Shown: positions 1-61,830 of the stretch, piece by piece | Layout: each line of letters begins with the position of its first letter | Numbering within the stretch: the first letter of the stretch is position 1 | Assembly: GCF_002741055.1 (NCBI RefSeq) | Contig: NZ_CP016809.1 | Location: 3,388,501-3,452,500 of the forward strand | DNA: 64,000 bases | Source of the DNA: Paenibacillus ihbetae | GTDB taxonomy: Bacteria > Bacillota > Bacilli > Paenibacillales > Paenibacillaceae | Reading direction: 5' to 3' | The notes under the pieces: model-generated | Told to the model about the DNA's origin: nothing | Database searches by the model: none | Seen by the model: only the letters and a program-made list of their open reading frames with translations | Program-made: the position numbers and the translations under genes

Positions 1-1
1 T

Positions 2-9409: not shown

Positions 9410-9452
9410 TTTTTCATGCTAACCCAAAAAGATTAATGCAATGGCGAGGATG

Positions 9453-9485: not shown

Positions 9486-9776
9486 CGTTCATCCCGCTTT
9501 TTTTGCAGTCGCGTCATGATGCAGATTTCCCGGTGCTCTTTTTTTCTTCGCTCGCTAAGACATTTCAATTTATGAACAAATTTTCGATTAACACTTCATT
9601 CGCCGAATAATAATGACAAACCTTGTCACTATTAACGATTAGGATAGAGATAAGGCAGCCGGTCCACTAACCATTTAATGAGAACCCCGGGACTCCAATA
9701 TATGGAGGGCGCTGGAACAGGAACGGATGGGCGAGCCGTATAACATATGCTTCTAATAATAAGGAGGATTGCGTTT

Positions 9777-10280: not shown

Positions 10281-10585
10281 TAATAACCTGACCGGAGCCC
10301 AGCGTTAAACTTTAACTCATTTAGCGTCCATCTTAAACCGCACGGATGTTGGGCCTGGCTAAAGCTCATCGGTTTCTGGCTGCGATCCTTACAGGGATTG
10401 CGGCTTTTCTTGTGTTCCTGGCGTCTGACCGGAAGTTATTGGCCGGCAGAACCCTACACACCCTCCCCACAAAAAGTACGTACACGGTACCTTGGAAGAC
10501 CCAGCCTTACTAACAATACACGATGTGGAGCCTGCCGTGCCGGAAATGGTATAATTCTACTAAAGTATGAGAGGGGGCAAGGCCA
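10281..10585. other. Intergenic region upstream of TPR-SUKH gene
   Basis: About 305 bases. I see no convincing gene, terminator or operator; the promoter of the TPR-SUKH gene presumably lies in the AT-richer end near 10540-10565. Confidence 0.4.
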
Positions 10586-11494: not shown

Positions 11495-11508
11495 ACGGAT
11501 GCGATAAG

Positions 11509-11556
11509 AAGCTGTTCAGTGAGGAGCGCGATCTCTTCCTCCTGAGCAGCTTTTTT
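11509..11556 (+). terminator. Terminator of TPR-SUKH gene
   Basis: Long stem beginning AAGCTGTTCAG and ending CTGAGCAGCTT with inner GAGGAG/CTTCCTC pairing, followed by TTTTTT. Confidence 0.85.
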
Positions 11557-11691
11557 ACAATGCGCCATTAGTCGGCATTACGCCGGGTGCCTCACCACAA
11601 ATAATTCCAGCTGCATGAAGCAAAAATTGTAATCGAATATCAAAAGAAACATTCTATTGTGTTAAGATGAGTATAAAGACTTAGAATAAGC

Positions 11692-11728
11692 ATTCAGAAA
11701 ATATTCAACGCAACATGCCAATATATAG
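11692..11728 (+). promoter_or_regulatory. Promoter-proximal motif of response regulator
   Basis: ATTCAGAAAATATTCA (11692-11707) contains TTCA twice with an 11-base period and is followed 14 bases later by TATATAG, a possible -10 box. Nearly the same 16-mer recurs before the LPKTG adhesin at 13799. It may be the binding site of the response regulator encoded just downstream. Direct observation of the repeat; function inferred. Confidence 0.45.
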
Positions 11729-11892
11729 AAGAAATGGTGTTGGACGATTGGGGAAGCTGTTCGCTGGATTTGCGTCCGAGGGATAACAAGAAGTCCTTCA
11801 TGCATGATTGCAATTCATCAGGAGCATCACTTCATCTATTACGAACCCGGTCAAGGGGGATGGCGAGCCTGCAGAAGGGGGAGAGAAAGACC

Positions 11893-13059
11893 TTGAAGGT
11901 CATGTTCGTCGATGATGAAATACTGGCTACACAGTATTTGAAGAGACTGCTGTTACAAGAGGAGGCTGCCGCCGATTTCCAATGGGTTGGCGAATATCAT
12001 AATCCGTATGAAGCATTAGATGCAGCCCAAATAGAGGAGCCTGACGTCGTATTTCTGGATATCGAGATGCCGGAGATGAACGGTTTTGAATTGGCGGAGC
12101 GTTTGTGGGAGATTCGGCCCCAGCTTCAGATCGTGTTTGTGACCGCCTACGATGATTATGCGATCAAGGCATTTGAGGTCAACGCGCTGGATTATTTGCT
12201 GAAGCCCGTGCTTCCTTCACGGCTTTCCGTTACATTAAACAGAATCGTTAAAGGTTCGTTATCAAAGCCAGCAGCAGCGGTCAGCCTTACCGAAGATGAA
12301 CAAGAACAAGTAACCCTTTGCTGTTTGCAATCCCTGCACTATAGGGAGAACGGCGAGCCGAAGCATTTTCCGTGGAAAACATTAAAGGCCCCGGAGCTGT
12401 TCGCCTACCTTATTTACTACCGGGGCAAGACGGTGAGCAAGCAGACGCTCATGGATCTGCTGTGGCCTGTCCACGACCCGCACAAGGCGGTGACCCAGCT
12501 TCATACGGCCATATATCAGATCCGGAAAATGATCAGAATGTGTGGGCTGGATGCCCGGATTCATTATCATGACGAGAGCTACCGGCTGGAGCTTGCGGGC
12601 AGGCTGGACGTGGAGAAATGGGAAGACAGGCTGAGTAAAGCGCCGGAGGTAACGCCGGACACGCTTTCCATCCACCAGTCGATCATGGATATGTACGAAG
12701 GGGATTTCCTGGCGGACCACCGGTATGTGTGGGCAGAGCCGGAGCAGGAACGGCTTCGGCTGCTCTGGCTCGAGCATGTTCAATCCGTCGCAGCATGTCA
12801 TGTCGAAATCGGCCAGCATGCGGAAGCCGTAAAAATCCACCAGCAGGTGATCGAGCGGCTGCCGTATTTGGAGGACGGCTATGTCGGATTGATGTATATC
12901 TATGCTTCGCTGTATCATCACTCTGAAGTCAGAAAGCTGTTTCAGCGGATGAAGGAAGTGCTGCTCGGAGAATACGAGGTCCCTCTCTCGGACAACATCG
13001 TTCAATGGTACAAAGAGTGGGAGCAGACCATTGAGGTCGCTGATGAGCAAGGGGTGTGA
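11893..13059 (+). CDS. Response regulator with BTAD output domain
   Basis: Predicted 388-residue cytoplasmic transcription factor. The TTG at 11893 is favoured because AAGGGGGAGAG precedes it and the receiver domain then starts at once (MKVMFVDDE). The receiver (1-120) has acidic D7/D8, phospho-acceptor D56 in VVFLDIEMPE and a KP motif in LLKPVLP. A winged-helix OmpR-like segment (about 150-230) and a bacterial transcriptional activator domain with TPR-like helices (240-385) follow. No histidine kinase is adjacent. Its stop overlaps the sortase start region, so the two are probably co-transcribed, and the LPKTG adhesin downstream is the likely regulatory target. Confidence 0.87.
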   Translation: MKVMFVDDEILATQYLKRLLLQEEAAADFQWVGEYHNPYEALDAAQIEEPDVVFLDIEMPEMNGFELAERLWEIRPQLQIVFVTAYDDYAIKAFEVNALDYLLKPVLPSRLSVTLNRIVKGSLSKPAAAVSLTEDEQEQVTLCCLQSLHYRENGEPKHFPWKTLKAPELFAYLIYYRGKTVSKQTLMDLLWPVHDPHKAVTQLHTAIYQIRKMIRMCGLDARIHYHDESYRLELAGRLDVEKWEDRLSKAPEVTPDTLSIHQSIMDMYEGDFLADHRYVWAEPEQERLRLLWLEHVQSVAACHVEIGQHAEAVKIHQQVIERLPYLEDGYVGLMYIYASLYHHSEVRKLFQRMKEVLLGEYEVPLSDNIVQWYKEWEQTIEVADEQGV

Positions 13060-13067
13060 GTGAGACC

Positions 13068-13691
13068 ATGATCAAACGGGTATTGCCTATTTTATTCATC
13101 ATTGCAGGAATCATCCTAATATTCTATCCGAAGCTGACGGAAATGGTTCAGCAGGCGGAGCAGGAGCAGCTGGCCCGCGAATGGCAGGATAGTCTTCAAC
13201 AGATCAGCGTTGTGGATGATCGTCAGGCGTCGGGGAACCCGGAATCCATTGAAGGTGAGTCGGGTACCCCCGCGCCGGCGGCTGCCAAGTCCGAAGGGGA
13301 GCTTGAAGTGATGCTTGCTATCCCGAAGATTGATCTGAAGCTGCCCGTATTGCACGGGGCGACGAAGGAGAATCTGAGGACGACATTGGCCAGCATCGAG
13401 CATACCGGAAGACCCGGACAGATTGGCAATTTTGCCGTTGCCGGTCATCGCAACCGAACCTATGGAAGGAACTTTAACCGATTGGATGAGCTGGCAGTGG
13501 GCGATTCCATCGAAGTGGATACGGGCTCACAAGTCTTTACGTATGAAGTAACCGAAAAGCTGATCGTCAAGCCGGAAGAGGTATGGGTGCTGGAGAGCGA
13601 CGGGAAGAACAAGGAGATTACGCTGGTGACCTGCCACCCGATGGTCAATCCGACGCATCGGCTCATTATTAAAGGGAAAATCATATCTTAA
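13068..13691 (+). CDS. Sortase (class A/D-like), second system
   Basis: Predicted 207-residue membrane-anchored sortase. An alternative GTG start at 13056 overlaps the preceding stop codon, so translational coupling with the response regulator is likely either way. The N-terminal helix is VLPILFIIAGIILIF. Catalytic residues are visible: His about 127 in VAGHRNR, Cys about 189 in TLVTCHPM, Arg about 198 in NPTHRLI. It lacks the TCYPF signature of the class D enzyme at 8780, so it is a separate type, closer to class A or the second class D subfamily. The gene 3' of it encodes an LPKTG protein, its probable substrate. Confidence 0.88.
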   Translation: MIKRVLPILFIIAGIILIFYPKLTEMVQQAEQEQLAREWQDSLQQISVVDDRQASGNPESIEGESGTPAPAAAKSEGELEVMLAIPKIDLKLPVLHGATKENLRTTLASIEHTGRPGQIGNFAVAGHRNRTYGRNFNRLDELAVGDSIEVDTGSQVFTYEVTEKLIVKPEEVWVLESDGKNKEITLVTCHPMVNPTHRLIIKGKIIS

Positions 13692-13725
13692 CGGTTGTAT
13701 TAGGTTTATTGTGAATATGCATTGG

Positions 13726-13764
13726 AAATAGGTCAATCCGATCCTGCGGTTGACCTATTTTTTT
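13726..13764 (+). terminator. Terminator between sortase and LPKTG adhesin
   Basis: Perfect 11-bp stem AAATAGGTCAA / TTGACCTATTT with a long T run. It separates the regulator-sortase transcript from the adhesin gene, which therefore needs its own promoter. Confidence 0.9.
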
Positions 13765-13798
13765 ATGAGTGACTGGCCGATGAAAGGACCTATGATTT

Positions 13799-13830
13799 AT
13801 TCAGAAAATGTTCAGAAGCCTGGTATATAG
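13799..13830 (+). promoter_or_regulatory. Promoter-proximal motif of LPKTG adhesin gene
   Basis: ATTCAGAAAATGTTCA (13799-13814) matches the 16-mer before the response regulator at 15 of 16 positions and is followed 9 bases later by TATATAG (13824-13830). This supports coordinated control of the adhesin and its regulator. Confidence 0.5.
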
Positions 13831-13894
13831 TAGGAAGGTCCTGCTCGAAAAACGGGTGCGACGATTTTAATTAAAAGAGAGGGTGATTCAACGA

Positions 13895-16800
13895 ATGCGA
13901 AGGAAGCGTTGGAGACAGCTGCCATTGCTTATGGCGATGCTGCTCTTGCTGAATTTGTTGTTCCCCCAAGGCTCGGCCTCTGCGGCTGCCGGCTCCAATC
14001 TCATCACGGAAAATATTATTACAGACATCATGATTAAAGATAGTGCGGGCAGAGATATTTCGCAGGAGGATGTGCGGCTGGACCAGGGAGCACGTGTTAA
14101 CATCATTATGAATTGGGAGCTGCCTGAGAATCACGGCTACAAGGACGGGGCGAAATTTATTTTCAGCCTTCCGGATCGATTCAAAGCGGGCAGGATTCTC
14201 GAAGGAGACCTTACCGGCGGGGTAGGAACGTATATCGTGTCGCCGGAGGGCGAAGTGACATTTACGTTCAATCAAGAGATCGAGGACGATGACCGATTGG
14301 ATGGAAATTTCTACGTCGAGATCGAATTCGAGGCAAGCAAATTTTCGGGCGGAACCCGCCAGGTCCTGGATTTTGATTTCCAGGGCGACATCGTTCAGAT
14401 TCCGGTGCATTTCAAAAGCAAGAGTGCCAGCGAAATCGACAAGAACGCTAAGCTGGACCGGCCGATGAACCCGAACAAAATCAGCTGGACCGTTGATTTT
14501 AACAAGGGTGAGAAGGCTACCGAAGATGCTGTGTTTGAAGACACGCTGCCTGCGGGACTTCAATTGGATGCAGCTTCGATTAAGGTGTACGAGCTGGAAG
14601 TGCAGCTGGATGGCAGCGTGAAGGAGACAAGAACGCTGACCGAAGGCACCGAGTATACCAAGGATTTAACTGCGGGGTTCAAGCTGAACTTCAACGGAAA
14701 GACCGACAAGGCCTATCGTGTTGTGTATGACACGGAGATCAAGGACAAGTCCGTTGCGAAATTCGATAACCGCGTGGAAGTGGCAGGCGATAATCTGACG
14801 CTGTCAGATACGGCGAGCGTGGGCGTTAAGTACAGCCAGCCGCTCGGGAAGAAACAAATAGGGTATGATGCGAACTCCCAGACGATTTCTTGGGCCATTC
14901 AATACAACTACAATGAACAGCGGATTGAACAGAACGATGCCTGGATCGAGGATAAATTCGATACTAGCACTCAAGAGCTGATTGATGATTCGTTCACTGT
15001 CTACAAAATGCAGATCGCTGACGACGGAACTGCGGTTAACAGTGGTCAGTCGCTCGTTAAGGGTCAAGACTATACCGTATCGAAAGAATCAACCGGGTTC
15101 AAGCTGGCGTTCAACGATATTATTGACTCCGCCTACGAGATCCGATATCAAACCAAAGCGAAGGGCCGCGTTCATCAAAACGGAGTAGTGGAAAACGCCG
15201 TTACCATGTGGGATGGTACTGAGGCTAAGGCAAGCGGGAATATCCGACAGGTCATTTTCAATAAAACTTATACGGGCATTAACTATGCCGACAAGACCAT
15301 CGACTGGCGGCTGATGCTCAATGAAGACGAACATCCGATGACCGGCGTGGTCATTACGGACAGCTTCGCAGGCGAGCATATGGAGCTTAAGGCTGGAAGT
15401 CTGGTCATAAAGGATAAGGGCGGCAACTTGCTCGCAGAAGGGACAGACTACAAGCTGGAGCCCGATCCCGATTACAGATCCGGCTTCAAGATTACCCTTT
15501 TGAAAGATATCTCGACGAGCCATGTCATTACGTATACCACAACCTTTGATCCTACCGCTCAAGCCGGGAAAGCAAGCTATGGGAACACCGGCGAAATCAG
15601 CTGGGATCAAGGAACCCCGATTAAGCTCCAAAAGGTTTCAATCGAAGTGGATCAATATACGAAGGATAACGGAGCAAAGACCGGGGAGTATGACGCAACG
15701 ACCAAGGAAATGACGTGGACGTTGATCGTGAATTACAATCTGTATAACATCGACAAACCGGTCGTGCGTGATTTCTATACGGGTCCGCAGCATTTCCTGG
15801 AGGATTCCGTTATAGTTCAGCCGCTGGATTTGACGGGAGGGACCAACGGCGTAAAGGATAGTGGAGCTCCTCTCACCCCAGGTACGGATTATACGGTTAG
15901 TCGGAGTACGAAAGACGGGAAAGACGGTTTTGAGTTAACGTTTGCAGATCCGATCGATTCCGCATACCGTATTACGTACAAAACAAGTCTGGATCAACTG
16001 CTGGTTGCCGAGGAATATGAGAATAACGCCGAGATGTATGATGCGGGCAGCCCGGACAACCAGTTGTTTAAAAAGGGCTCGATAGTCGAACCGAAGCACG
16101 GCGGGGAAGTCATTCATAAGAGCGGCAAGCAGGGGACCGGAGCGGAACAAGAGTACGCCTATTGGACCGTGGATATCAACCGAAGCCAGTCTTACGTGGA
16201 AGACGCCGTGGTGAAAGACGAGCTGTCCGTGAATCAAATTCTGATTCCGGATTCCTTCAAGCTGTACAAGACCAACGTTGCCAAGAATGGCACGCTGGCC
16301 AAAGGCGCGCTCATTAATAAAACGGACTACAGCTTGGACATTCAGGGCAATGCGTTTACCCTGACGTTCCCGCAACCGATTGAAGAAGCTTATGTGCTGG
16401 AATACACCTCGTTTATCAACGCGGATAACGGGGAAGCCATCAGCAACCATATTTCGTTAGCCGGCCAGTCGGCAGGCGATGTGCAGGATGCCAAGATGGA
16501 GCAGTTCAACGTCAGCTTCTCCGGAGCCGGGGGCGGGGCGAATGTCCCGGGCAAGGGCGATCTTTTGATCAAGAAGATCGATGCGGATACCCATGCGCCA
16601 TTAGCCGGCGCCAAGTTCGGGCTTTACGATAAGACCGGAAGCACACTCCTGCAGATTCTTGAGACGAATGAGCAAGGTGAAGCAATTTTTAAGAATTATA
16701 AATATAAGCAGTACATGCTTAAGGAATTGGAGCCTCCGGCCGGATACCTCATCGATGATCCATACCGGGATGGTTACACCATTGATTTTGCACCGGGTAA

Positions 16801-52446: not shown

Positions 52447-52548
52447 TCGTACGATAATCGCAAACCCACTGAAAAGTGGCGACGCAAAGCTATAGGGGCT
52501 AATGCGGATCTGCATAGAACCGCGATGCCAGCCAGCTGCCGAATACGA
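52447..52548 (+). promoter_or_regulatory. Cyclic-di-GMP-I (GEMM) riboswitch, copy 1
   Basis: Matches the class I c-di-GMP aptamer: GCAAACC, a GAAA-tetraloop P2 (CCACT-GAAA-AGTGG), GACGCAAAGCTATAGGGG-CTAA, and the receptor/P3 element ATGCCAGCCAGCTGCCG. P1 is TCGTA (52447) with TACGA (52544). The G before CAAACC is the position that favours c-di-GMP over cGAMP. The aptamer is followed by alternative hairpins at 52547-52606. It stands in tandem with copy 2, ahead of the regulator at 53060. Confidence 0.93.
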
Positions 52549-52610
52549 CGGAAGCCTCCGTCACTTCTTGCTAGTTACTACCTAGGTCTTCAAGCTGACG
52601 GAGGCTATTT
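52547..52610 (+). terminator. Expression platform of riboswitch copy 1
   Basis: Antiterminator GACGGA (52547) / TCCGTC (52557) competes with an 11-bp stem AGCCTCCGTCA (52553) / TGACGGAGGCT (52596). The T run after it is weak (TATTT), so termination strength is uncertain. Confidence 0.6.
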
Positions 52611-52696
52611 GCTGTTCACAAATTTTTCAAAGGGAGGTTCCTGCGCCAGCTGCCTGTTCCTCGAAGAGAAAATCATGGATGCCTGAAGGGAGGTGA

Positions 52697-52756
52697 ATGA
52701 TGCGGAGAATGATGTCCCGCAGCATGTCATTACTAGGCAGGGCTATAAACGGATAA
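52697..52756 (+). CDS. Possible 19-residue peptide between tandem riboswitches
   Basis: ATGATG preceded by AAGGGAGGTGA, one of the strongest SD sequences in the window. The frame encodes a Met/Arg-rich basic peptide (MMRRMMSRSMSLLGRAING) and then stops. No family is known to me. It sits between riboswitch copies 1 and 2 and would be gated by copy 1. Confidence 0.4.
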   Translation: MMRRMMSRSMSLLGRAING

Positions 52757-52807
52757 CTCGGTAATTTCATGCGGAAGCGTGTTTGACAGCCAACCAATCG
52801 AATCGTT

Positions 52808-52910
52808 TCGTACGATAATAGCAAACCCACTGAAAAGTGGCGACGCAAAGCTATAGGGGCTAATGCGGATCTGCCTAAGATTCGTGATGCCAGCCAGTTG
52901 CCGAATACGA
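52808..52910 (+). promoter_or_regulatory. Cyclic-di-GMP-I (GEMM) riboswitch, copy 2
   Basis: Nearly the same sequence as copy 1 over the whole aptamer, including GACGCAAAGCTATAGGGG and GCCAGCCAGTTGCCG; differences cluster in the P3 tip. P1 is TCGTA (52808) / TACGA (52906). Followed by a strong terminator and then the regulator at 53060. Copies 1 and 2 look like a recent tandem duplication. Confidence 0.93.
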
Positions 52911-52915
52911 CGGAA

Positions 52916-52963
52916 ACCCCCGTCCTATTTTGCTATGGTAATTTTCATGGATGGAGGTTTTTT
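52916..52963 (+). terminator. Expression platform terminator of riboswitch copy 2
   Basis: ACCCCCGTCC (52916) pairs with GGATGGAGGT (52949), one mismatch, followed by TTTTTT. The alternative GACGG/CCGTC antiterminator shares its 5' strand with P1. Confidence 0.8.
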
Positions 52964-53059
52964 ATTTTTCGCTAAAAGACTACGATTTTGCAGCGGCGAT
53001 GAATAGGAGATCGATTTCATTATTAATCACTTATTCTTAACAAGGAAGAAGGGAAAATA

Positions 53060-53779
53060 ATGGGCCAAAGAACATTGCTGAAAGTAAACGATCATTTCCT
53101 CAGCATGACTGAAATAAAAAAGAGGCTGATCGAGCGAAAAGAAATCCTGTATCTGTTGCAAGAGGAAACCGGGAATATGAACGATTTGCTGCCTATACCT
53201 TATTTATTTGTCATTGCGGACCCAGAGGGAACCATTATCGACTATTGCGGGACGGAGCTGTTAAAAGGCTACTTTGAAAGAAACCATATGAAAATTGGTA
53301 CATCTTCTGCTATGAACAAGGCGGGAATCAATGCCATTGGTTTATCCATGGAAAAACACTCGGCTTCAGTCGTAATCGGCGCCGAGCACAGCAATCGATT
53401 GTTTGCGGAGCTGTCCTGCGTTTGCACGCCCATCCGAATCAAAAATGTTATCATCGGCTACCTCAGCCTCTGTTTTCATTATTTTCACGAGGTTACATTT
53501 GCCCTGCCCCTCATTGAGCATTTGGCCAAAAATATTGAAGAAAAGCTGCCCCAGAAGGATCCCATGCTGCAAAAGGAGCTGACCTATTCCCTCTTTGAGC
53601 AATATAAATTAACGAATCGCGAGAAGGAAATCGCCTACGGGTGGCTGGAAAATAAAAACGTGCCTGAAATCGCGGATACCTATGGAATTAGTCAAAGCAC
53701 GGTCCGCACGTTTATTAAAAAAATTTACGCCAAAACGAGAGTCAATCATAAAGGAGCGTTTCTGAGGAAGTTTACCTAA
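53060..53779 (+). CDS. GAF-like sensor with LuxR-type HTH, riboswitch-controlled
   Basis: Predicted 239-residue cytoplasmic regulator. The N-terminal part (about 45-165) resembles the GAF sensor of sigma-54-activator-like proteins: PYLFVIADPEGTIIDYCG, then a segment of the type AMNKAGINAIGLSM and a later CTPIRIKNVIIGYLSL. The C-terminal LuxR-like HTH (about 185-239) reads LTNREKEIAYGWLENKNVPEIA and STVRTFIKKIYAKTRV. No receiver domain. A tandem c-di-GMP riboswitch pair lies in its leader, so its synthesis should respond to c-di-GMP. Target genes are unknown; the neighbouring surface cluster is plausible. Confidence 0.8.
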   Translation: MGQRTLLKVNDHFLSMTEIKKRLIERKEILYLLQEETGNMNDLLPIPYLFVIADPEGTIIDYCGTELLKGYFERNHMKIGTSSAMNKAGINAIGLSMEKHSASVVIGAEHSNRLFAELSCVCTPIRIKNVIIGYLSLCFHYFHEVTFALPLIEHLAKNIEEKLPQKDPMLQKELTYSLFEQYKLTNREKEIAYGWLENKNVPEIADTYGISQSTVRTFIKKIYAKTRVNHKGAFLRKFT

Positions 53780-53803
53780 AGAATGGAATACATACGCATC
53801 CAT

Positions 53804-53827
53804 TACCCAATTTTGGGTATTTTTTTT
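53804..53827 (+). terminator. Terminator of LuxR-type regulator gene
   Basis: TACCCA-ATTT-TGGGTA followed by eight T, 25 bases after the stop. A matching element with one loop change occurs at 61628. Confidence 0.85.
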
Positions 53828-53898
53828 ATTTACGTCGAATCTTATAATTTAAAGTAAGTTGTTGTTGAAGGATTAATTAATTTTTACAATTTCATACA

Positions 53899-54003
53899 TC
53901 GTACGATAATAGCAAACCCGTTGAAAGATGGCGACGCAAAGCTACAGGGGCTAAGGTGGGTGTTTTTAATGCAACCACTATGCCAGCCAGTTACCGAATA
54001 CGA
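53899..54003 (+). promoter_or_regulatory. Cyclic-di-GMP-I (GEMM) riboswitch, copy 3
   Basis: GCAAACC, P2 with GAAA loop (CCGTT-GAAA-GATGG), GACGCAAAGCTACAGGGG-CTAA, a longer P3, and TGCCAGCCAGTTACCG. P1 is TCGTA (53899) / TACGA (53999). Strong terminator at 54009. It precedes the interrupted small gene and the two genes at 54287 and 55011. Confidence 0.92.
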
Positions 54004-54008
54004 CGGAG

Positions 54009-54041
54009 CCTCCGTCTATTTAAACATGGCGGGGGTTTTTT
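54009..54041 (+). terminator. Expression platform terminator of riboswitch copy 3
   Basis: CCTCCGTC (54009) pairs with GGCGGGGG (54028) including wobble pairs, then TTTTTT. Antiterminator GACGGA / TCCGTC overlaps it and the P1 3' strand. Confidence 0.78.
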
Positions 54042-54131
54042 GTATTCTAGGTGATCTTGCTATAGGAGGTGAGGAACACACTCCCGTCTCGAAATAACGG
54101 CACCAAAGCAGAATCGTGTGACAAGGAGGGG

Positions 54132-54272
54132 ATGATATGTATTCAAGCTGTATTAAATCTATTGAATGCATAAGCGCTTTTGGAACTTCGGAGAGAACTG
54201 GGCGAAGAAGCGTTCTTGATATATGATCCAAACAGTATCCTGGAATTAATAGAAGCTAAACTAAAACTTTGA
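54132..54272 (+). pseudogene. Small gene interrupted by in-frame ochre codon
   Basis: ATG with SD AAGGAGGGG opens a frame of 13 codons, then TAA (54171), after which the same frame continues for 32 codons (LLELRRELGEEAFLIYDPNS onward) to TGA just before the next SD. Without the TAA the product would be a 46-residue helical protein. Either two short peptides or a recent nonsense mutation. Confidence 0.5.
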
Positions 54273-54286
54273 GGAGGAAATGATTT

Positions 54287-55030
54287 ATGAGCGATATTAA
54301 AATGGAGGATTCCAATACCTTCGAAGCTGTAGCAATTAAAAACGAAGCTGTGCCTTACAGTCAATATGCCCCGGATATGCATGTATCGGTTGGTTGTATC
54401 CCCTGTACAAGAGCGCACTTGTCAGCGGTCTCCGTATCGCTAAAGGAGGGGGATGCAGAGACTGCCCGTGAGGAGATCTCCGCACTGATGGAATACGATT
54501 TGACACCGGAGAAGCTAGCGGCGACACCAGAGAGAGACCGTGAAGTATTAGCCAAGTACGCAAAAGCCATTTCCTCCTTGCAGAAAAAACTAGCTGAACC
54601 CGTACCGGAATTGACGGCAATTGCTGCATCGCTTAAAGAAGCCATCCGTTTTGCCAGAGTAGACGGTATAGAACATCCCGAAGTACAGATGCGGCTTGAA
54701 CGTTCTGAGGAATTGGTGAATGGCTTAGAACGAATTCGGTTCGCACCGGAAAAACTACAGTCTCTGGATCCGAATATGCGCGATGAAGTAAAGAGGTTGT
54801 TGCCCGAGCTTCGCGAGGCACGCCATCAACTGTTGAACGGCATCACCACAGCGGATGATCTGGAATTGGTAGGCGCTCGTTTTGCTGTAATTTCACGGAA
54901 AATCAACGTCAATCCTGATCCGGAGACATTACAACTAGCGCAGAAGGAAGCCGCAGAATTGAATTCAAGCTTTCGTCGGGATGTACTTCAAGCTTGGGGA
55001 GGTAAATCATATGAGTCAACTAGACAATGA
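54287..55030 (+). CDS. Protein of unknown function, riboswitch-3 regulon
   Basis: Predicted 247-residue cytoplasmic protein, start fixed by GAGGAGG. A short variable N-terminus leads to VGCIPCTRAHL near residue 35, a CxxC that could bind metal, and then long amphipathic helices rich in Glu, Arg and Leu to the end. No signal peptide or membrane helix. I do not recognise the family. The stop overlaps the start of the next gene by 20 bases, so the two form an operon under riboswitch copy 3. Confidence 0.75.
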   Translation: MSDIKMEDSNTFEAVAIKNEAVPYSQYAPDMHVSVGCIPCTRAHLSAVSVSLKEGDAETAREEISALMEYDLTPEKLAATPERDREVLAKYAKAISSLQKKLAEPVPELTAIAASLKEAIRFARVDGIEHPEVQMRLERSEELVNGLERIRFAPEKLQSLDPNMRDEVKRLLPELREARHQLLNGITTADDLELVGARFAVISRKINVNPDPETLQLAQKEAAELNSSFRRDVLQAWGGKSYESTRQ

Positions 55031-55286
55031 AATCATATATGGTTTGTCTATGGAGTGCAGCATTGCAGACCATCGCCCTTGCGAGCTTGCCACCGTTATC
55101 GGCATGGCGGTGGACATCAGTCAACAGGAAGATATAGCTCTTCCACCGCAGCTCCAACTTATCATGGATACTCAGACTTTGACTGAAAGTGGCGTACGTT
55201 TGGCTCTCCATGAATGGATGAATACTATTCCTGAGTCCCAAAAAGAAGTTGCCGCAGGTTTACTCAGCATCCTTGAAAATGGATAA
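55011..55286 (+). CDS. Small protein of unknown function, partner of preceding gene
   Basis: Predicted 91-residue acidic cytoplasmic protein. ATG 55011 follows GGGAGGTAAATC. It contains cysteine and histidine in MECSIADHRPCELATVI and predicted helices after. No family recognised. Overlap with the preceding gene indicates coupled translation and a joint function. Confidence 0.7.
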   Translation: MSQLDNEIIYGLSMECSIADHRPCELATVIGMAVDISQQEDIALPPQLQLIMDTQTLTESGVRLALHEWMNTIPESQKEVAAGLLSILENG

Positions 55287-55304
55287 CGATATAAAAACAA
55301 ACAT

Positions 55305-55331
55305 AAAAAATACCGATTTTCGGTATTTTTT
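55305..55331 (+). terminator. Terminator of unknown-function operon
   Basis: Stem AAAAAATACCGA / TCGGTATTTTTT with 3-nt loop; bidirectional look. The following stretch to 55600 is AT-rich and holds the promoter of the next transcript. Confidence 0.9.
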
Positions 55332-55600
55332 ATCGCAGACGCCTCTAACATAGATCGCGTCATTAATAGATCTACTAAGTTTCCAAAATAACCATTCTTT
55401 TTATGAGATCTTGTTTCGGAATGATCTTGTCGGCTTATCATTGCTAGCAAATAAATGTTGATATAGCACTAAAGCCTTATATTCCAAAATACGACAAATA
55501 GTGATAAACTACCACGAAATTGAGTCAATATAACCTAACTTATCAATTATATGTGTTGTAAGATTAAGGAAATGTTAAAACTTACATTTACATAAAATGC

Positions 55601-55707
55601 TCGTACGATAATGGCAAACCCATTGAAAAGTGGGGACGCAAAGCTACAGGGGCTAATGGATTTGCTGAAAGAAGCAAGTACTATTGCCAGCCAGCTACCG
55701 AATACGA
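55601..55707 (+). promoter_or_regulatory. Cyclic-di-GMP-I (GEMM) riboswitch, copy 4
   Basis: GCAAACC, P2 with GAAA loop (CCATT-GAAA-AGTGG), GGACGCAAAGCTACAGGGG-CTAA, longer P3 and TTGCCAGCCAGCTACCG. P1 is TCGTA (55601) / TACGA (55703). It lies about 330 bases before the giant LPNTA protein start. Confidence 0.93.
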
Positions 55708-55713
55708 CGGAAG

Positions 55714-55749
55714 ACCCGTCTGTTAGCGTTTGCTATTGGACGGGTTTTT
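55714..55749 (+). terminator. Expression platform terminator of riboswitch copy 4
   Basis: Perfect ACCCGTC / GACGGGT 7-bp stem followed by TTTTT. Antiterminator GACGG (55706) / CCGTC (55716) is mutually exclusive with both P1 and this stem. The 286 bases from here to the gene start hold no credible gene. Confidence 0.82.
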
Positions 55750-56035
55750 CATTTTTAGTTATTTCAAATTTTAATTAACGTTAGTCGAGGCAACAAGCCT
55801 TGTCTATAGATAAGATGAACCTTCGAGGAGGGAGCGTCCTTTGGGAAAATAAGAAATACATAGTAGGAGGCGATGAGTAAGTGATGGCGTTACGGCCATT
55901 CGCTCGTATTGATCAAATGGATTGAGATCAATCCATAAGTCGAAGTATGGATTCGATTTGACTAGCAATGTATTAAATTTAAGGCTCATTACAGTCCAAT
56001 GACGGCCAAGACTAACAACGATTGGAGGGAGATGT

Positions 56036-59000
56036 TTGAGCAGTATTCATTCTGGTACGAGCACAAAATTGATCAAGCGTTTGTTTATCCAGTTTTGTGT
56101 ATTTTTAGTTGCTTTAGGCGGGATATTTCCTTTACAGCCATCTCAGGCTCAGGCCGCATCCTTTTCGATTAATGACACTGATACTTATATTATATCCGGG
56201 AATGCTATCTACCAGATCGACGGAAATAATCCGGGCGAGCTAGACCCAAAGGCAAGCCTAGCACTTAACAACGCACTCCTCATTAATAATGGATTAGCGA
56301 TGTCCATGACGGAAAATGCCTTCTACGCATTTAGCGGAAGTGGCGGCATCAATCGGCTGTATAAGATTTCAGAAACGGGTGCTACTACACAGGTAGCCAC
56401 GTTGACCGGAACAGCAGCAAACGCCGTAATTAGCCCGGATAATAAATACTATTATATTTACACCGAAAATGGGGAGAATTATCTCGCATACTACGATATA
56501 ACAACAAATCAGCAAGATCGTAAGGTTATTATCGGCTTGACAAGTAGCAACGGTGGCGACATTCTTTATGACAAAAACGGGTTTATTTGGCTTTTGGATC
56601 TTGTTGACCAGGTAAAGGTCTATCAAATCGATCCGGCAACGGCAGAAGTAATACGTTCTGTTCCTATGGTAAGTGCAGACGGCCAATCCATCGATCCTGG
56701 ACCGCGGGCTCTTAGCTTCCTGCCGAACGGGAAAATGTATGTGGGCGCTGGAAACACCAACACGCTCGTATACGAACTTGATCCAGAAACACTTAGCTAT
56801 CGATTCCTGAGCTCTACAAATATTGAGATTACTTACGATGCCGCTTCGCGTGTCATTCCTAATTTCGATCCAAATCCTCCTCAACTTGAATCGCAGAAAT
56901 CGGCGAAGATTCAAGAAAAAGCGGATGGAAACACCGTTGCGGACCAGCCTGAAGTGGGAGATACGCTGCTATACACGATTCAGAGTCGAAATACGATCTC
57001 TGAAAGTCTGATTCGAAACATGGTTATCTCGGATACGATTCCGGAAGGCTTGGAATATGTTCCGGGTACACTGACAGTGGAGGGGCAACCGGTCAGTGAT
57101 GATCGAGATAATGATCAAGGCGAGTTTGTCGATTCTACAGTAACCGGAACGATTGGCGATGTAACCGACACTGAGTGGCATCGTATCACTTTTCAAGTGA
57201 AGGTCACTTCGGGTCAAGCCGGTAAGAGCATCGAAAATGTAGCAACTGTTACGGGCGACAATCTAGATATGCCTGATGAGCCGAAGAATGCGATTGACGT
57301 GTATCCACTTAATCCTCCAAATGCTTGTTCATCACCAGTGGCTTTGATTAATGGTGAATTTGAAAAGCCGGAGGGACCTGGTACTTTTGATAACTCGGTA
57401 GCCGGAGGCGGTTACTACTATGCAGACACGGTTCCAGGGTGGAATACGACGGATACTAACCGTACACCAAGAGGGATCATTCAAATCATGGACCCTGCCC
57501 GACCAAGCACGATACCTTCAAACACTCCGAATCAGGACAATCTTACGAGTAGATTTGCAGAATTAAATGCGGATACAAATAGTATGCTGTATCAAGATTT
57601 ACCAACTGTACCAGGGCAGACAATCTATTGGCGCTTAGATCACAGAGGATATAGTGGCGTGGACACGATGAGTGTTAATATTGGACCGGTTACGAACGAT
57701 CCATTCAATACCACGCCAGAAATAAAGAGAATTTCAACTGGGACTGCATGGGAAACTTATTCCGGGAGTTATACGGTTCCTGCAGGTCAAACAGTAACAC
57801 GTTTTGGATTTAAAGCAATTAGTACATCTACTGGAGCCTTGGCTTTCGGTAATTACCTGGACAACATCTTCCTGGGAACTGAACCATGTGTTATCGCAGA
57901 GAAATCCGTTTCTCCTGCTGGAGAAGTTTTTGAAGGCGATGAACTTACTTACGAAGTCACAGTTAAAAATGAAGGCGGAGACGTTGCCGCAAATACCGTC
58001 TTTGAAGACGTCATTCCTGCGGGCACGGAATATGTTCCAGGCTCCATGAGAATGGTGAGCGGGACCAATACCATTGATCTAACCGATGCAGATGATACAG
58101 ATGCAGGACACTTTGACGGCAGCAAGGTGATCATTAGGCTCGGAAATTTGCAGAATACCAATGACTTGCCTGACGGCATCACAGTTCAATTCAGAGTGAA
58201 AGCATTATCCAGCCATGTCGGCCAGACGGTCACCAATCAAGCGACTGTTGATTATAAGAACTTACTGGCAGGCAAAGAGGAAACGATCGATTCTAATGAA
58301 GTGTCGAGTGGTATTCTCGAAAGAGAAGTCATTGATGCTTGCGCTAGGCCAGTTGCAATGATCAATGGCAGTTTTGAGCAAGGCGCTGTCCGGGGAACTG
58401 CTGTTAATACGTCCGGACTCTACTATTATGAATCCGAAGTACCTGGATGGAAGACCACGGATGATGCTAACGGTTATCCAGTCATTGAACTATGGGACTG
58501 GGAGCGAAATAATCCTGCGGTTGTAAAGAACTGGCCAGCTCCCCCGGACGGCGGGAAATGGGCGGAACTAAATGCTTATGAAAACGGGATGCTTTACCAG
58601 GATGTGAAGACAACCCCTGGACAGACCATCTATTGGCGCCTATCCCATATGGGACGGCAAGGGGTTGACACGATGCAGCTTCGTATTGGAGCAGCAACGG
58701 CTAACCCGTACGACACCAAAGTTCAAGAACAAATGACGGACGGTAACAAAGCATGGGGAACCTATACAGGCACGTATACGGTCCCAGCAGGACAAACGGT
58801 CACTCGCTTCGGCTTTGAGGCGGTGAGTACAGCAAGTGGAAACATTGGAGCTGGAAACTTCATCGATGATATTTTCCTTGGTACGTCGCCTTGTGTGACA
58901 GCTAACAAGACCGCATCTCCACAAGAAGTGAGTGCCGGCGATGAAGTAACCTACGAGATTCAGATCAAGAATGAAGGCGGAGACATCGCCGCCGATGCAA

Positions 59001-61495
59001 GCGTGATGGATCTGATTCCGCAAGGAACGGAATATGTCCCTGGCTCCATGAAATTGATCCTGGGCTCGACCACCAAAGACCTGACGGATGCCGACGACAC
59101 CGACGAAGGTCGCTTTGACGGCAGCCAGGTCAGCATTCAGTTAGGCGACTTGGCCAATACGAGCCAATTGGCTGACGGCGTTACCGTGCAATTTAAAGTC
59201 AAGGTTCTAGCAAGCGCCGCCAATCAGCAAATTAAGAACAAAGCACAAATCAGCTATAACAACTTACTAACAGGCGACACGGAAGAGAAGGAATCGAACG
59301 AAACCACCACGACGGTCCGTTTCAATCCTCCTGTTCTGGAGTCCAGCAAAAATGCCGTCCTTCAAACGAAGGCTGCCGGAAACACGGACCCTGGTAACCC
59401 TGAACCAGGCGATACGTTGCGGTACACGATTCAGGCACGGAATACGATCGAAAAGAGCTTTGTCAGCAGCTTGGTTATCTCGGACGATCTGCCGGCAGGA
59501 CTGCAATATGTACCGGGCAGCCTGAAGGTAGACGGCGCTGCCGTCACGGATGACGCAAGCGATCAAGACAGAGGTATGTATACCGATGGGCAAGTTATCG
59601 GCCTGTTCGGGGATATTACGGACACCGAGTGGCATACGCTGGAGTTCGAAGCGATTATTGAGCCTGGACAAGCTGGCAAAAATATTCGAAATACCGCTGT
59701 AGCCGGTGGCGAGAATGTGAGCACACCGAGCGAGTCCGAGGAAGAAGTTCAGGTTTATCCGCGTCATCCGGTTGTGGAATCGGAGAAAATTGCAGAAAAC
59801 CTGAATGCGGGCAAAACTCATTTCGAAGTCGGGGATACGGTTGTCTACACCATTCGGGCAAGAACGGTGACACAGGATGCGTATATCTCGAATTTGAAAA
59901 TTACGGATACACTCCCGGCAGGACTGGAATACGTGCCGGGCACCTTGACCGTGGATGGCCAATCCGTCACCGATGATGAAGGCGACGATGAAGGCCATGT
60001 GGTAACCCGCTCCGTGTACGGAGGATTCGGCGATATCTGGGATGAGGATTGGCATGAGCTTCAGTTCCATGCAATCATCCAATCCGGACAAGCCGGCAAG
60101 GATATTCGGAATATTGCCGCTGTCACCGGCGATAATTTCGACGAGCCTAGTGAGCCGGAAGAAGAAGTCAAGGTCTATCCGCGCGATCCAGTGATCGTAT
60201 CCGAGAAGTCCGCAATGAATCTTGAAGCGGGCAAGCAAACATTCGAAGTCGGGGATACCGTTACCTATACGATCCGGACAAGAACGGTGCTGGACGATAC
60301 GTATATGTCCAACCTGGTAATATCGGATACGCTGCCGGCCGGTCTGGAATATATTCCGGGCAGCTTGAAGGTCGACGGTGTTTCGGTCACCGATGACCAG
60401 GACAGCGACAAAGGCCATTATGCTTCAGGTCAGGTTGTCGGTAACGTCGGGGATGTATGGGATACGAAATGGCATACGCTGGAGTTCCAGGCGAAGATCG
60501 TAGCAAGCGCCGGAGAATCGATTCGTAACACCGGTGAAATTACCGGGGACAACATCGATCAGCCGAGCCGCCCAACGGATGAGATTGTGGTTGAGGAAGG
60601 CGACACGCCGCCGGTAGACCCACCGGTTGATCCGCCAGTCGATCCACCCGTCAATCCACCGGTAGATCCAAATCCACCGGTCACACCGCCTGTAACGCCG
60701 CCGACGCCTTCTCCTGTCATCGAGTCACGGAAGACGTCACGGGATCTAAGTGGCGGCATCGTCGGGGTCGGCGATACGCTGGAGTATACGATTTCCGCAC
60801 GGAATACCGTTGCGGGCAGCTATGTATCGAATCTGGTGATTGCCGACGTCCTGCCGGAAGGGCTGACGTATGTAGCAGGCAGCCTGAAGGTGGACGGCAT
60901 TTCCGTCACCGATAACGTTGATGGAGACAAAGGCCAGTACGTTAACGGCAAAGTGAGCGGTAACTTTGGACGGATTACGGATACCGAATGGCATACGATT
61001 GCGTTCAAGGCAACCGTCAAAGCGGAACAAGCCGGCAAAACGATCGAAAACATCGGTGAAGTCACAGGCGATAATGTGACAAGTCCACAAAAGCCATCGA
61101 ATGTCATCGAAGTGACCGACAGCCGGAATAACGGTGGTAACAACACCAACCCTGGTGGCACGGGAGGTTCCGACGGAGATTCGAATGAAGATCCGAATGG
61201 AAACTCGAACGAGGACACAGACGGCGATTCTAACGGGAACCCGGATGAAGACTCGAATGGAGACGCTGACGGGGATTTGAATACCGGGGCACAAACACCG
61301 GACGATCGGAACGATTCAGACTTAGGCAAATCGGGTGCATCTCCACAGAATCCGGCACAATCCGGAGATCAGGCAGCAAATGAGCCTAACGGTAATAAAT
61401 TGCCGAATACGGCTACGAATATGTACAGCTATTTGCTGGCTGGATGCATCATTTTCTTTACAGGACTGTTCCTGATCAGAAGAAAAAAGGTATAA
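56036..61495 (+). CDS. LPNTA sortase-anchored giant surface protein, riboswitch-controlled
   Basis: Predicted 1819-residue secreted protein. TTG start at 56036 with SD GGAGGGAGATGT as in the paralogue. After the signal peptide (to QAQAAS) residues 40-275 form a beta-propeller-like module absent from the paralogue. Then DUF11 repeats, three ING-type galactose-binding-like modules (NACSSPVALINGEF, NACARPVAMINGSF type) and further DUF11 repeats match the 3831 gene closely. A Pro-Val-Asp tract, an Asp/Asn-rich spacer, LPNTATNMYSY, a membrane helix and RRKKV complete it. The class D sortase at 8780 is its likely anchor. The c-di-GMP riboswitch copy 4 should govern it, fitting an adhesin switched with lifestyle. 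Confidence 0.92.
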   Translation: MSSIHSGTSTKLIKRLFIQFCVFLVALGGIFPLQPSQAQAASFSINDTDTYIISGNAIYQIDGNNPGELDPKASLALNNALLINNGLAMSMTENAFYAFSGSGGINRLYKISETGATTQVATLTGTAANAVISPDNKYYYIYTENGENYLAYYDITTNQQDRKVIIGLTSSNGGDILYDKNGFIWLLDLVDQVKVYQIDPATAEVIRSVPMVSADGQSIDPGPRALSFLPNGKMYVGAGNTNTLVYELDPETLSYRFLSSTNIEITYDAASRVIPNFDPNPPQLESQKSAKIQEKADGNTVADQPEVGDTLLYTIQSRNTISESLIRNMVISDTIPEGLEYVPGTLTVEGQPVSDDRDNDQGEFVDSTVTGTIGDVTDTEWHRITFQVKVTSGQAGKSIENVATVTGDNLDMPDEPKNAIDVYPLNPPNACSSPVALINGEFEKPEGPGTFDNSVAGGGYYYADTVPGWNTTDTNRTPRGIIQIMDPARPSTIPSNTPNQDNLTSRFAELNADTNSMLYQDLPTVPGQTIYWRLDHRGYSGVDTMSVNIGPVTNDPFNTTPEIKRISTGTAWETYSGSYTVPAGQTVTRFGFKAISTSTGALAFGNYLDNIFLGTEPCVIAEKSVSPAGEVFEGDELTYEVTVKNEGGDVAANTVFEDVIPAGTEYVPGSMRMVSGTNTIDLTDADDTDAGHFDGSKVIIRLGNLQNTNDLPDGITVQFRVKALSSHVGQTVTNQATVDYKNLLAGKEETIDSNEVSSGILEREVIDACARPVAMINGSFEQGAVRGTAVNTSGLYYYESEVPGWKTTDDANGYPVIELWDWERNNPAVVKNWPAPPDGGKWAELNAYENGMLYQDVKTTPGQTIYWRLSHMGRQGVDTMQLRIGAATANPYDTKVQEQMTDGNKAWGTYTGTYTVPAGQTVTRFGFEAVSTASGNIGAGNFIDDIFLGTSPCVTANKTASPQEVSAGDEVTYEIQIKNEGGDIAADASVMDLIPQGTEYVPGSMKLILGSTTKDLTDADDTDEGRFDGSQVSIQLGDLANTSQLADGVTVQFKVKVLASAANQQIKNKAQISYNNLLTGDTEEKESNETTTTVRFNPPVLESSKNAVLQTKAAGNTDPGNPEPGDTLRYTIQARNTIEKSFVSSLVISDDLPAGLQYVPGSLKVDGAAVTDDASDQDRGMYTDGQVIGLFGDITDTEWHTLEFEAIIEPGQAGKNIRNTAVAGGENVSTPSESEEEVQVYPRHPVVESEKIAENLNAGKTHFEVGDTVVYTIRARTVTQDAYISNLKITDTLPAGLEYVPGTLTVDGQSVTDDEGDDEGHVVTRSVYGGFGDIWDEDWHELQFHAIIQSGQAGKDIRNIAAVTGDNFDEPSEPEEEVKVYPRDPVIVSEKSAMNLEAGKQTFEVGDTVTYTIRTRTVLDDTYMSNLVISDTLPAGLEYIPGSLKVDGVSVTDDQDSDKGHYASGQVVGNVGDVWDTKWHTLEFQAKIVASAGESIRNTGEITGDNIDQPSRPTDEIVVEEGDTPPVDPPVDPPVDPPVNPPVDPNPPVTPPVTPPTPSPVIESRKTSRDLSGGIVGVGDTLEYTISARNTVAGSYVSNLVIADVLPEGLTYVAGSLKVDGISVTDNVDGDKGQYVNGKVSGNFGRITDTEWHTIAFKATVKAEQAGKTIENIGEVTGDNVTSPQKPSNVIEVTDSRNNGGNNTNPGGTGGSDGDSNEDPNGNSNEDTDGDSNGNPDEDSNGDADGDLNTGAQTPDDRNDSDLGKSGASPQNPAQSGDQAANEPNGNKLPNTATNMYSYLLAGCIIFFTGLFLIRRKKV
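60606..60712 (+). repeat. Pro-Val-Asp/Thr-Pro tandem codon repeats
   Basis: Same type of tract as in the paralogue but with fewer PPVDPP and TPPV units. Slippage or gene conversion has altered the number. Confidence 0.8.
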
Positions 61496-61509
61496 AGATA
61501 TGAGTTGCA

Positions 61510-61543
61510 AACAGTCCCTCCGGAAGATTATGGAGGGGCTGTT
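61510..61543 (+). terminator. Weak hairpin after surface protein gene
   Basis: AACAG(T)CCCTCC pairs with GGAGGGGCTGTT with one bulge; no T run follows. The better terminator is at 61628. Confidence 0.4.
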
Positions 61544-61627
61544 CTCACTTATAGCCCAGAGATTAGCAACGCGCAGTTATAGATGAAAAGCAAGATCTGA
61601 ATCCTTCGCATAGATGTTTTTGTCCAC

Positions 61628-61650
61628 TACCCAATTATGGGTATTTTCTT
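61628..61650 (+). terminator. Terminator before riboswitch copy 5
   Basis: TACCCA-ATTA-TGGGTA then TTTT; like the element at 53804, including downstream bases. It may end the surface protein transcript. Confidence 0.7.
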
Positions 61651-61724
61651 TATTTAAGTAAAATTTTATAATTGTAAGCAAGTCACCTGATGGTAGATAG
61701 TTAAAATTTAAACTAATTCATAAT

Positions 61725-61830
61725 TCGTACAATCTATCGCAAACCCATCGAAAGTGTGGTGACGCTAAGCTACAAGGGCTAACGTGGATGCTAATAGGCA
61801 CCCACAATGCCAGCCAGTTGCCGAATACGA
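61725..61830 (+). promoter_or_regulatory. Degenerate cyclic-di-GMP-I riboswitch, copy 5
   Basis: Recognisable core GCAAACC, GAAA, GGGCTAA and ATGCCAGCCAGTTGCCG with P1 TCGTA (61725) / TACGA (61826). However the normally invariant GACGCAAAGC reads GACGCTAAGC (T at 61766), P2 is imperfect, and no terminator follows. Binding may be lost or altered. It is the only such element before the Spo0E-like gene. Confidence 0.8.

What the first reader, a model, noticed from the sequence alone, without database searches (positions are those of the whole stretch)
52447..61830. Five class I c-di-GMP riboswitches in 9.4 kb around one adhesin
Five recognisable GEMM-I aptamers (52447, 52808, 53899, 55601, 61725) share the GCAAACC, GAAA, GACGCAAAGC and GCCAGCCAG core and head four transcription units: a GAF/LuxR regulator, a pair of unknown proteins, a giant LPNTA surface protein and a Spo0E-like phosphatase. 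Such density around one set of functions is unusual and suggests a local c-di-GMP regulon linking adhesion and sporulation control. Aptamers are seen directly; the regulon is inference.
Basis: partly seen in the sequence, partly recalled or inferred. Interest (0 to 1): 0.9.

Follow-up and report, generated by a model that had tools for sequence, protein, structure and literature searches.

The report
Riboswitch-headed gene cassette island
Five RNA sensors for the bacterial signal c-di-GMP really do sit within 9.4 kb here, but one is a decaying relic and the other four look like 'off' switches heading gene blocks that have been gained, lost and swapped between related bacteria, so this is a fast-changing corner of a known kind of regulon rather than a proven adhesion-sporulation circuit.

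Summary
All five class I c-di-GMP aptamers are real (Rfam). They are 5 of 15 in this 6.59 Mb Paenibacillus genome, the highest count among 100 genomes of its genus; 8 of the other 10 also head surface-protein genes. Copies 1-4 share a platform whose geometry predicts transcriptional OFF switches (folding plus a three-way covariation). Copy 5, before the Spo0E-like gene, is a relic: pocket base A47 changed, no terminator, sub-threshold in P. lactis, truncated in one relative, absent in two. A sporulation link is thus unsupported here, though in one relative (G077) loss of the LuxR gene puts an intact leader before the Spo0E-like gene. Only copies 1 and 2 are a local duplication; copies 3 and 4 resemble leaders elsewhere in the genome. 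The density is a mosaic of riboswitch-headed units that vary between relatives. The adhesin (15 differences in 4.6 kb, against 20% divergence at recN) was recently exchanged between species just downstream of a resident leader. Unexplained: four of five copies lack G at ligand-contact position 20 (C, A, A, C; about 6% in the genus).

The parts
52449..52543 (+). c-di-GMP-I aptamer 1 (C at ligand-contact position 20), first of a tandem
   Evidence: RF01051 70.3 bits; C20 also in P. lactis, A20 in G100; 89% alike to copy 2
52547..52605 (+). platform 1: antiterminator 52547-52562 overlapping P1, terminator arm 52596-52605; weak U tract
52810..52905 (+). c-di-GMP-I aptamer 2 (A20), second of the tandem
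   Evidence: RF01051 67.6 bits; A20 also in the second copy of G002 and G100 and in the single copy of G105 and G077
52909..52969 (+). platform 2: antiterminator 52909-52924 and terminator with U tract
53060..53779 (+). LuxR-type HTH regulator, 239 aa
   Evidence: PF00196 34.7 bits; close orthologs in G002 (92%), G100 (84%) and G105 (81%) among the 60 and 20 genomes searched
53804..53860 (+). terminator-like element plus leader, left copy of a diverged direct repeat that flanks units B and C
53901..53998 (+). c-di-GMP-I aptamer 3 (A20)
   Evidence: RF01051 70.1 bits; nearest leader in the genome is 5296899, 86%
54002..54041 (+). platform 3: antiterminator 54002-54016, terminator ending in TTTTTT
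54287..55030 (+). unit B protein 1, 247 aa, all-helical, unknown function
   Evidence: no Pfam/NCBIfam family above cut-off; 3 of 394 family genomes; model pLDDT 89.9, no PDB match at E 0.001
55011..55286 (+). unit B protein 2, 91 aa, unknown
   Evidence: no family; a similar frame follows the homologue of protein 1 in G342 and G275
55604..55703 (+). c-di-GMP-I aptamer 4 (G20, A47)
   Evidence: RF03167 61.1 bits, RF01051 70.0 bits; groups with surface-protein leaders elsewhere in the genome, 82-85%
55706..55749 (+). platform 4: antiterminator 55706-55720, terminator with U tract
56036..61495 (+). LPNTATN surface protein, 1819 aa, DUF11/isopeptide repeats, TTG start
55990..60615 (+). block nearly identical (15 differences in 56000-60600) to G100: recent interspecies exchange
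61628..61690 (+). right copy of the terminator/leader direct repeat
61728..61825 (+). aptamer 5, relic: C20, A47U, no terminator
   Evidence: RF01051 44.5 bits
62001..62297 (+). Spo0E-like protein, 98 aa (start uncertain)
   Evidence: PF09388 40.1 bits

Best explanation
This is a variable island of genes with c-di-GMP-I (GEMM-I) leaders, inside a genome-wide c-di-GMP-I regulon of a Paenibacillus near P. lactis. Copies 1-4 look like working transcriptional switches. Binding of the dinucleotide would close helix P1 (UCGUA/UACGA); the 3' strand of P1 shares two bases with an antiterminator hairpin (GACGGA-loop-UCCGUC), so a closed P1 would let the downstream terminator form and switch the gene OFF. 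The tandem before the LuxR gene would give two termination checks in series, the first with a poor U tract. Copy 5, before the Spo0E-like gene, is a decaying copy without terminator. The density is a mosaic: one local duplication (copies 1 and 2) plus units that came and went with leaders of other branches (copies 3 and 4), and an adhesin coding block exchanged between species. Shown: aptamers, platforms, geometry, orthologous loci, decay of copy 5, relations of the leaders, exchange of the adhesin block. Inferred: ligand binding, OFF direction in the cell, recombination route, species name.
For: Five Rfam hits, 15 genome-wide; by my reading of the translations 8 of the other 10 head surface-protein genes (SLH, LPNTATN/LPNTSTN, LPKTG). 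Antiterminator -7.5 to -9.1 kcal/mol with P1 open versus -2.1 to -3.6 with P1 closed in copies 1-4; copy 5 only -3.4/-1.9 and no terminator. Of 53 distinct leaders matched by my pattern in the fetched loci, 32 had both hairpins, and I count 29 of the 32 with P1 and antiterminator sharing at least 2 bases; the script's stricter filter passed 18 of 53. The shared base covaries with both partners: C-G-C 22, U-A-U 4, U-G-U 1 of 27 leaders. Aptamer-5 site in five genomes: weak, sub-threshold, truncated, absent, absent. At this locus G002 and G105 lack units B and C; G100 has a FAS-like cluster in place of B and the same adhesin. Adhesin 15 differences in about 4.6 kb, against 79.5% identity at recN and 80-85% in the LuxR gene. 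Unit B in 3 of 394 genomes, behind a GEMM-I leader in each (decayed in one). Copy 4 closest to surface-protein leaders elsewhere, copy 3 to 5296899, copies 1 and 2 to each other.
Against: The covariation rests on five leaders of one gene lineage, so probably one event. The studied adhesin leader Bc2 of B. thuringiensis is an ON switch (PMC4933901, abstract and passages). The left edge of the exchanged block is about 46 bases before the start codon, not in the aptamer, so recombination at riboswitches is not shown. Gain in this genome or loss in G002/G105 is not resolved. Five genomes carry the locus or its remains. In G077 an intact leader does stand before the Spo0E-like gene.
Confidence: 0.74

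Rival explanations
1. One reading: a local c-di-GMP regulon that joins adhesion and sporulation control through a riboswitch on the Spo0E-like gene.
For: An RF01051 hit above threshold lies 175 bases before the Spo0E-like frame; P1 strands and part of the platform are kept. In G077 an intact A20 leader with terminator precedes the intact Spo0E-like frame.
Against: In this genome A47U in the pocket and no terminator; ortholog below threshold with further losses in P. lactis, truncated in G100, none in G105. In G077 the pairing comes from loss of the LuxR gene. One paper holds c-di-GMP, riboswitch, sporulation and Spo0E together (listing only), by title on two-component systems.
Confidence: 0.08
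2. The copies with A or C at position 20 sense another dinucleotide (3',3'-cGAMP or an unknown one), so the cluster is a mixed-ligand array.
For: Position 20 is C, A, A, G, C in the five copies, and A in only 1 of the other 10 in the genome; A20 is kept in the copy-2 type leader of five genomes. G20A is the change tied to cGAMP binding (PMC6274999 passages; PMC9481103 section 38).
Against: Nine GGDEF matches in the genome: seven carry the aspartate of canonical cyclases at the selectivity position, two are degenerate, none has the Hypr serine; no SMODS hit, other CD-NTase families not searched. The unit B leader has G20 in G342 but A20 here, and copy 1 has C20 here but A20 in G100, so the base drifts.
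Confidence: 0.12
3. The leaders are ON switches like Bc2 of B. thuringiensis, so that c-di-GMP raises the surface protein.
For: Bc2 precedent and the general rule that c-di-GMP favours adhesion (PMC6366702, listing and passages).
Against: P1 excludes the antiterminator, not the terminator, in the leaders analysed; the seven functional class I switches of C. difficile are OFF (PMC6366702 passages).
Confidence: 0.12
4. A plain insertion hotspot: riboswitch-headed genes of separate origin collected here, and the leaders play no part in why they came.
For: c-di-GMP-I leaders are common in the genus (622 hits in 100 genomes), tandems are frequent (347 doublets, PMC9481103), and copies 3 and 4 are closer to leaders elsewhere in the genome than to their neighbours.
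Against: 0 of 20,000 random placements; units B and C lie between diverged repeats that contain a leader; unit B goes with a GEMM-I leader in 3 of 3 genomes.
Confidence: 0.2

Closest known systems
c-di-GMP-I (GEMM-I) riboswitches, RF01051, including tandem doublets/triplets
   Same: Aptamer core, P1-linked transcription termination, tandem copies each with own platform; 347 doublets and 12 triplets reported (PMC9481103 passages)
   Different: Pocket position 20 is C or A in four of five copies; copy 5 degenerate
Riboswitch series of Desulfobacca acetoxidans (PMC9481103, section 38)
   Same: Several GEMM-I aptamers within 7 kb in clusters, one with a changed pocket base
   Different: There mixed with AdoCbl riboswitches and predicted ON for the c-di-GMP parts; here one class only, OFF geometry, other genes
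Bc2 / cap of Bacillus thuringiensis (PMC4933901, abstract and passages)
   Same: c-di-GMP-I leader with terminator before a wall-anchored adhesion protein
   Different: Bc2 is reported as an ON switch; geometry here predicts OFF
Tandem c-di-GMP-I before transglutaminase-like genes in Bacillota (PMC12452182, abstract and passages)
   Same: A tandem before what I read as a transglutaminase-like gene is also present elsewhere in this genome (194068 and 194219)
   Different: Other target gene

Membership tests
c-di-GMP-I riboswitch (RF01051) | Covariance score above the gathering threshold | tested here: met
   4 of 5 by best family; the fifth (55604) scores 70.0 with RF01051; so 5 of 5
c-di-GMP-I riboswitch (RF01051) | Usual bases at the ligand contacts G20 and A47 (Vc2 numbering recalled, not from a call) | tested here: not met
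   G20 with A47 only in copy 4 (1 of 5); copies 1-3 have C/A/A20 with A47; copy 5 C20 and U47. The Rfam scores stand; affinity is open
c-di-GMP-I riboswitch (RF01051) | Binds c-di-GMP and switches expression | not testable with these tools
   needs in-line probing and transcription assays
Transcription-terminating OFF switch | P1 excludes an antiterminator, terminator compatible with P1 | tested here: met
   copies 1-4 (copy 1 with a weak U tract); not met by copy 5
c-di-GMP-I-GGC (RF03167) | G in place of A47 (family consensus shown) | tested here: not met
   copy 4 has A47 although it reaches 61.1 bits against a threshold of 59
c-AMP-GMP riboswitch (GEMM-Ib) | A at position 20 | tested here: met
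   copies 2 and 3 only (2 of 5)
c-AMP-GMP riboswitch (GEMM-Ib) | cGAMP synthase in the same genome | tested here: inconclusive
   no Hypr serine in 9 GGDEF matches, no SMODS hit; other CD-NTase families not searched
Spo0E-like phosphatase (PF09388) | Pfam match above cut-off | tested here: met
   40.1 bits, cut-off 23; activity not tested
LPxTATN-anchored surface protein (NF058670) | C-terminal sorting signal above cut-off | tested here: met
   36.0 bits, cut-off 32

The most novel reading that the evidence does not exclude
The island is a c-di-GMP-gated cassette locus: OFF-switch leaders of shared sequence act as landing pads and deletion points that let closely related bacteria swap surface-protein, lipid-synthesis and unknown units while keeping each newcomer under c-di-GMP control, and drift of pocket position 20 (G, A, C) gives the units different set-points or even different dinucleotide inputs.
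Probability: 0.16. Interest if true: 0.72.

Novelty: new member of a known kind. Interest (0 to 1): 0.44.

Why it matters
It gives a natural series (five genomes, four seemingly intact leaders with three different pocket bases on one platform, and one leader caught at several stages of decay) in which to ask how riboswitch regulons gain and lose genes and how a single ligand-contact base sets affinity. It also warns that a threshold-passing Rfam hit before a sporulation gene can be a relic.

Tried and rejected
Adhesion-sporulation link in this genome: rejected after comparison of the aptamer-5 site in five genomes, with the G077 exception told above. RF03167 identity of copy 4: rejected because it has A47. 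My own first reading that the whole cluster arose by local duplication: dropped after comparing all 15 leaders; it holds for copies 1 and 2 only. Mixed-ligand array with cGAMP: lowered after the GGDEF and SMODS searches. Class II c-di-GMP riboswitches: none found in the genome, but the control genomes gave none either, so this is no proof of absence. Function of unit B: no family, 43 homologues, those with a source name called hypothetical or uncharacterized, confident helical model without a PDB relative, best E 0.18. LuxR relatives in other genomes: of the 30 loci returned I scanned 20, and only the P. lactis ortholog had GEMM-I aptamers in its 1.5 kb flanks. Promoter scan gave fewer hits than shuffles (12 against mean 16.4) and the terminator scan no excess (10 against 10.0), so neither was used as evidence that sites work. 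Literature: nine searches listed no paper on this locus; absence from print is claimed only for those listings of the held library. Kellenberger 2015 and Weinberg 2017 are not held. T20 was not searched; the A20/C20 patterns are narrower than the covariance model, so 35 non-G20 against 622 hits is a rough lower bound.

Full report
Observation. Rfam at gathering thresholds finds five class I c-di-GMP aptamers on the + strand of the window and no other family: 52449, 52810, 53901, 55604 and 61728. The fourth is listed under the sister family RF03167, but it carries the A that RF03167 replaces by G, and scores 70.0 bits with RF01051. Five of 15 genomic aptamers within 9.4 kb did not occur in 20,000 random placements.

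Genome-wide setting. The genome (one contig, 6.59 Mb, window at 3388501-3452500) has 15 RF01051 hits; 8 of the 15 lie in 72 kb, counting three just left of the window (3378196, 3382879, 3387277). Of the ten outside the finding, eight head surface-protein genes by my reading of the translations: SLH proteins (3378196, 3387277, 2423230), LPNTATN/LPNTSTN proteins (3382879, 2937962, 2569711) and, as a tandem, a transglutaminase-like plus LPKTG pair (194068, 194219). The other two (2087830, 5296899) head what look like an oxygenase pair and a RibD-like pair (no family search was run on these). In the genus 93 of 100 genomes have at least one hit, 622 in all; 15 is the highest number, the next is 12 (one search used stricter filters). 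So the regulon is common; its size and local density are at the top of the range.

Mechanism. Copies 1-4 share the ending CCGAAUACGACGGA, then a pyrimidine-rich arm, then a G-rich arm and, in copies 2-4, a U tract. Helix P1 is UCGUA/UACGA. The GA at the end of P1 is also the start of the antiterminator GACGGA-loop-UCCGUC. Folding gives the antiterminator -9.1, -7.5, -8.2 and -7.5 kcal/mol with P1 open, and -3.6, -2.4, -2.8 and -2.1 with P1 closed, for copies 1-4. The terminator does not need P1. A ligand that closes P1 should therefore switch the gene OFF. In 27 distinct leaders with this platform the shared base covaries with both partners: C-G-C 22, U-A-U 4, U-G-U 1; the five departures belong to one gene lineage, so this is probably one event. 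Of 53 distinct leaders matched by my pattern in the fetched loci, 32 showed both hairpins by my simple search, and I count 29 of the 32 with P1 and antiterminator sharing two or more bases; the script's stricter criterion, which also asks for a four-base overlap of antiterminator and terminator, passed 18 of 53. Many of the remaining leaders have other platforms. The OFF direction is an inference; Bc2 of B. thuringiensis, also before an adhesion protein, is reported ON (PMC4933901, abstract and passages), whereas the functional class I switches of C. difficile are OFF (PMC6366702, passages).

Copy 5. The aptamer before the Spo0E-like gene has U at the position of A47 (GACGCUAAGC), an inserted base in the first hairpin, and no terminator. 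At the same site P. lactis (G002, named through by its contig) has a sub-threshold copy with further losses, G100 a fragment, G105 and G077 none, while the Spo0E-like frame is kept in each. One result runs the other way: in G077 the LuxR gene is gone, and the single intact A20 leader with its terminator now stands directly before the intact Spo0E-like frame.

A variable island. Close orthologs of the LuxR gene were found in G002 (92%), G100 (84%) and G105 (81%) among the 60 and 20 genomes searched. Leaders before it are tandem in three (window genome, G002, G100) and single in two (G105, G077) of five genomes. Behind the LuxR gene: G002 and G105 have the Spo0E-like gene at once; G100 has another aptamer, a fatty-acid-synthesis-like cluster (my reading of the translations), aptamer 4 and the same surface protein; the window genome has aptamer 3, two unknown proteins, aptamer 4 and the surface protein. 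The segment present here but absent from this locus of G002 (54007-61628) is flanked by a diverged direct repeat made of a terminator-like element, a leader and an aptamer (53804 and 61628). Unit B protein 1 is found in 3 of 394 family genomes, 79-81% alike in two other genera, each time behind a GEMM-I leader, one of them decayed. Gain versus loss at each step is not resolved.

Origin of the leaders. Over aptamer plus antiterminator, copies 1 and 2 are closest to each other (89%). Copy 3 is closest to the leader at 5296899 (86%; 78% to copy 1). Copy 4 groups with surface-protein leaders elsewhere (82-85%, against 71-75% to copies 1-3). Copy 5 is 75% to copy 3 at best (short sequences, tree support moderate). 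So only the tandem is a plain local duplication; the cluster is otherwise a mosaic.

Exchange of the surface protein. Against G100, the window's 56000-60600 has 15 differences (about 99.7% identical), with a sharp left edge at 55990 and a ragged right edge after 60616; the leader just upstream is 81-93% identical, the LuxR gene 80-85%, and recN 79.5%. Both genomes are single-contig assemblies. The coding block was recently exchanged between species while the resident leader stayed.

Position 20. The base before GCAAACC, which contacts the ligand (Vc2 numbering recalled), is C, A, A, G, C in copies 1-5 and G in 9 of the other 10 genomic copies; Fisher test 4/5 against 1/10, p = 0.017, with the caveat that copies are related. 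In 394 family genomes patterns found 50 A20 matches in 40 genomes and 25 C20 matches in 23 genomes; within the genus 21 and 14, against 622 RF01051 hits, about 6%. A20 is kept in the second or single leader before the LuxR site in five genomes; copy 1 is C20 in two and A20 in G100; the unit B leader is A20 here and G20 in G342. G20A is linked to cGAMP binding (PMC6274999 passages; PMC9481103 section 38). Of nine GGDEF matches, seven have the canonical aspartate and two are degenerate; none has the serine that marks Hypr enzymes (PMC6456294 passages), and there is no SMODS hit. The simplest reading is altered affinity for c-di-GMP; altered ligand is possible.

Novelty. Tandem and clustered c-di-GMP-I riboswitches are known: 347 doublets and 12 triplets, and seven riboswitches in 7 kb of Desulfobacca acetoxidans including one with a changed pocket base (PMC9481103, passages and section 38); c-di-GMP is among the families most prone to tandem arrangement (PMC12452182, abstract and passages). 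What is added here is the evolutionary anatomy: turnover of riboswitch-headed units, a leader in decay, a recent allele exchange behind a resident leader, and three pocket bases in one cluster. I file it as a new member of a known kind.

Noticed in passing
54135-54272: Short frame with a good ribosome site, interrupted by one in-frame TAA, before unit B; the second part has no convincing relative in the fetched loci apart from this place itself.
   Followed up: partly
L111, L113, L115-L119, L121, L125: Tandem GEMM-I pairs with G20 in the first and A20 in the second aptamer, mostly before a secreted-protein operon that I read as transglutaminase-like; tandems before that gene family are already reported (PMC12452182).
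   Followed up: no
L090, L091, L094-L101, L105, L106: A C20 GEMM-I subfamily with a changed 3' half (GAUCGUCCG or close to it instead of GACAGCCGG), mostly before secreted proteins.
   Followed up: no
L150 (reverse) 6664-14827: Fatty-acid/polyketide-like gene cluster, by my reading, behind a GEMM-I leader next to the LuxR ortholog in G100.
   Followed up: partly
G000:C1:3378196, 3382879, 3387277 (L016): Three more GEMM-I leaders before giant SLH/LPNTATN proteins just left of the window; the gene behind the last one runs into window 1-3472.
   Followed up: partly
L124, L127-L129, L154: A20 leaders before an NRPS-like frame in five other genomes (G077, G100, G104, G105, G002), with compensated changes in P1 and antiterminator.
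   Followed up: partly
L151 (reverse) 5715-6185: In G077 the LuxR gene is lost and an intact A20 leader directly precedes the Spo0E-like frame.
   Followed up: partly
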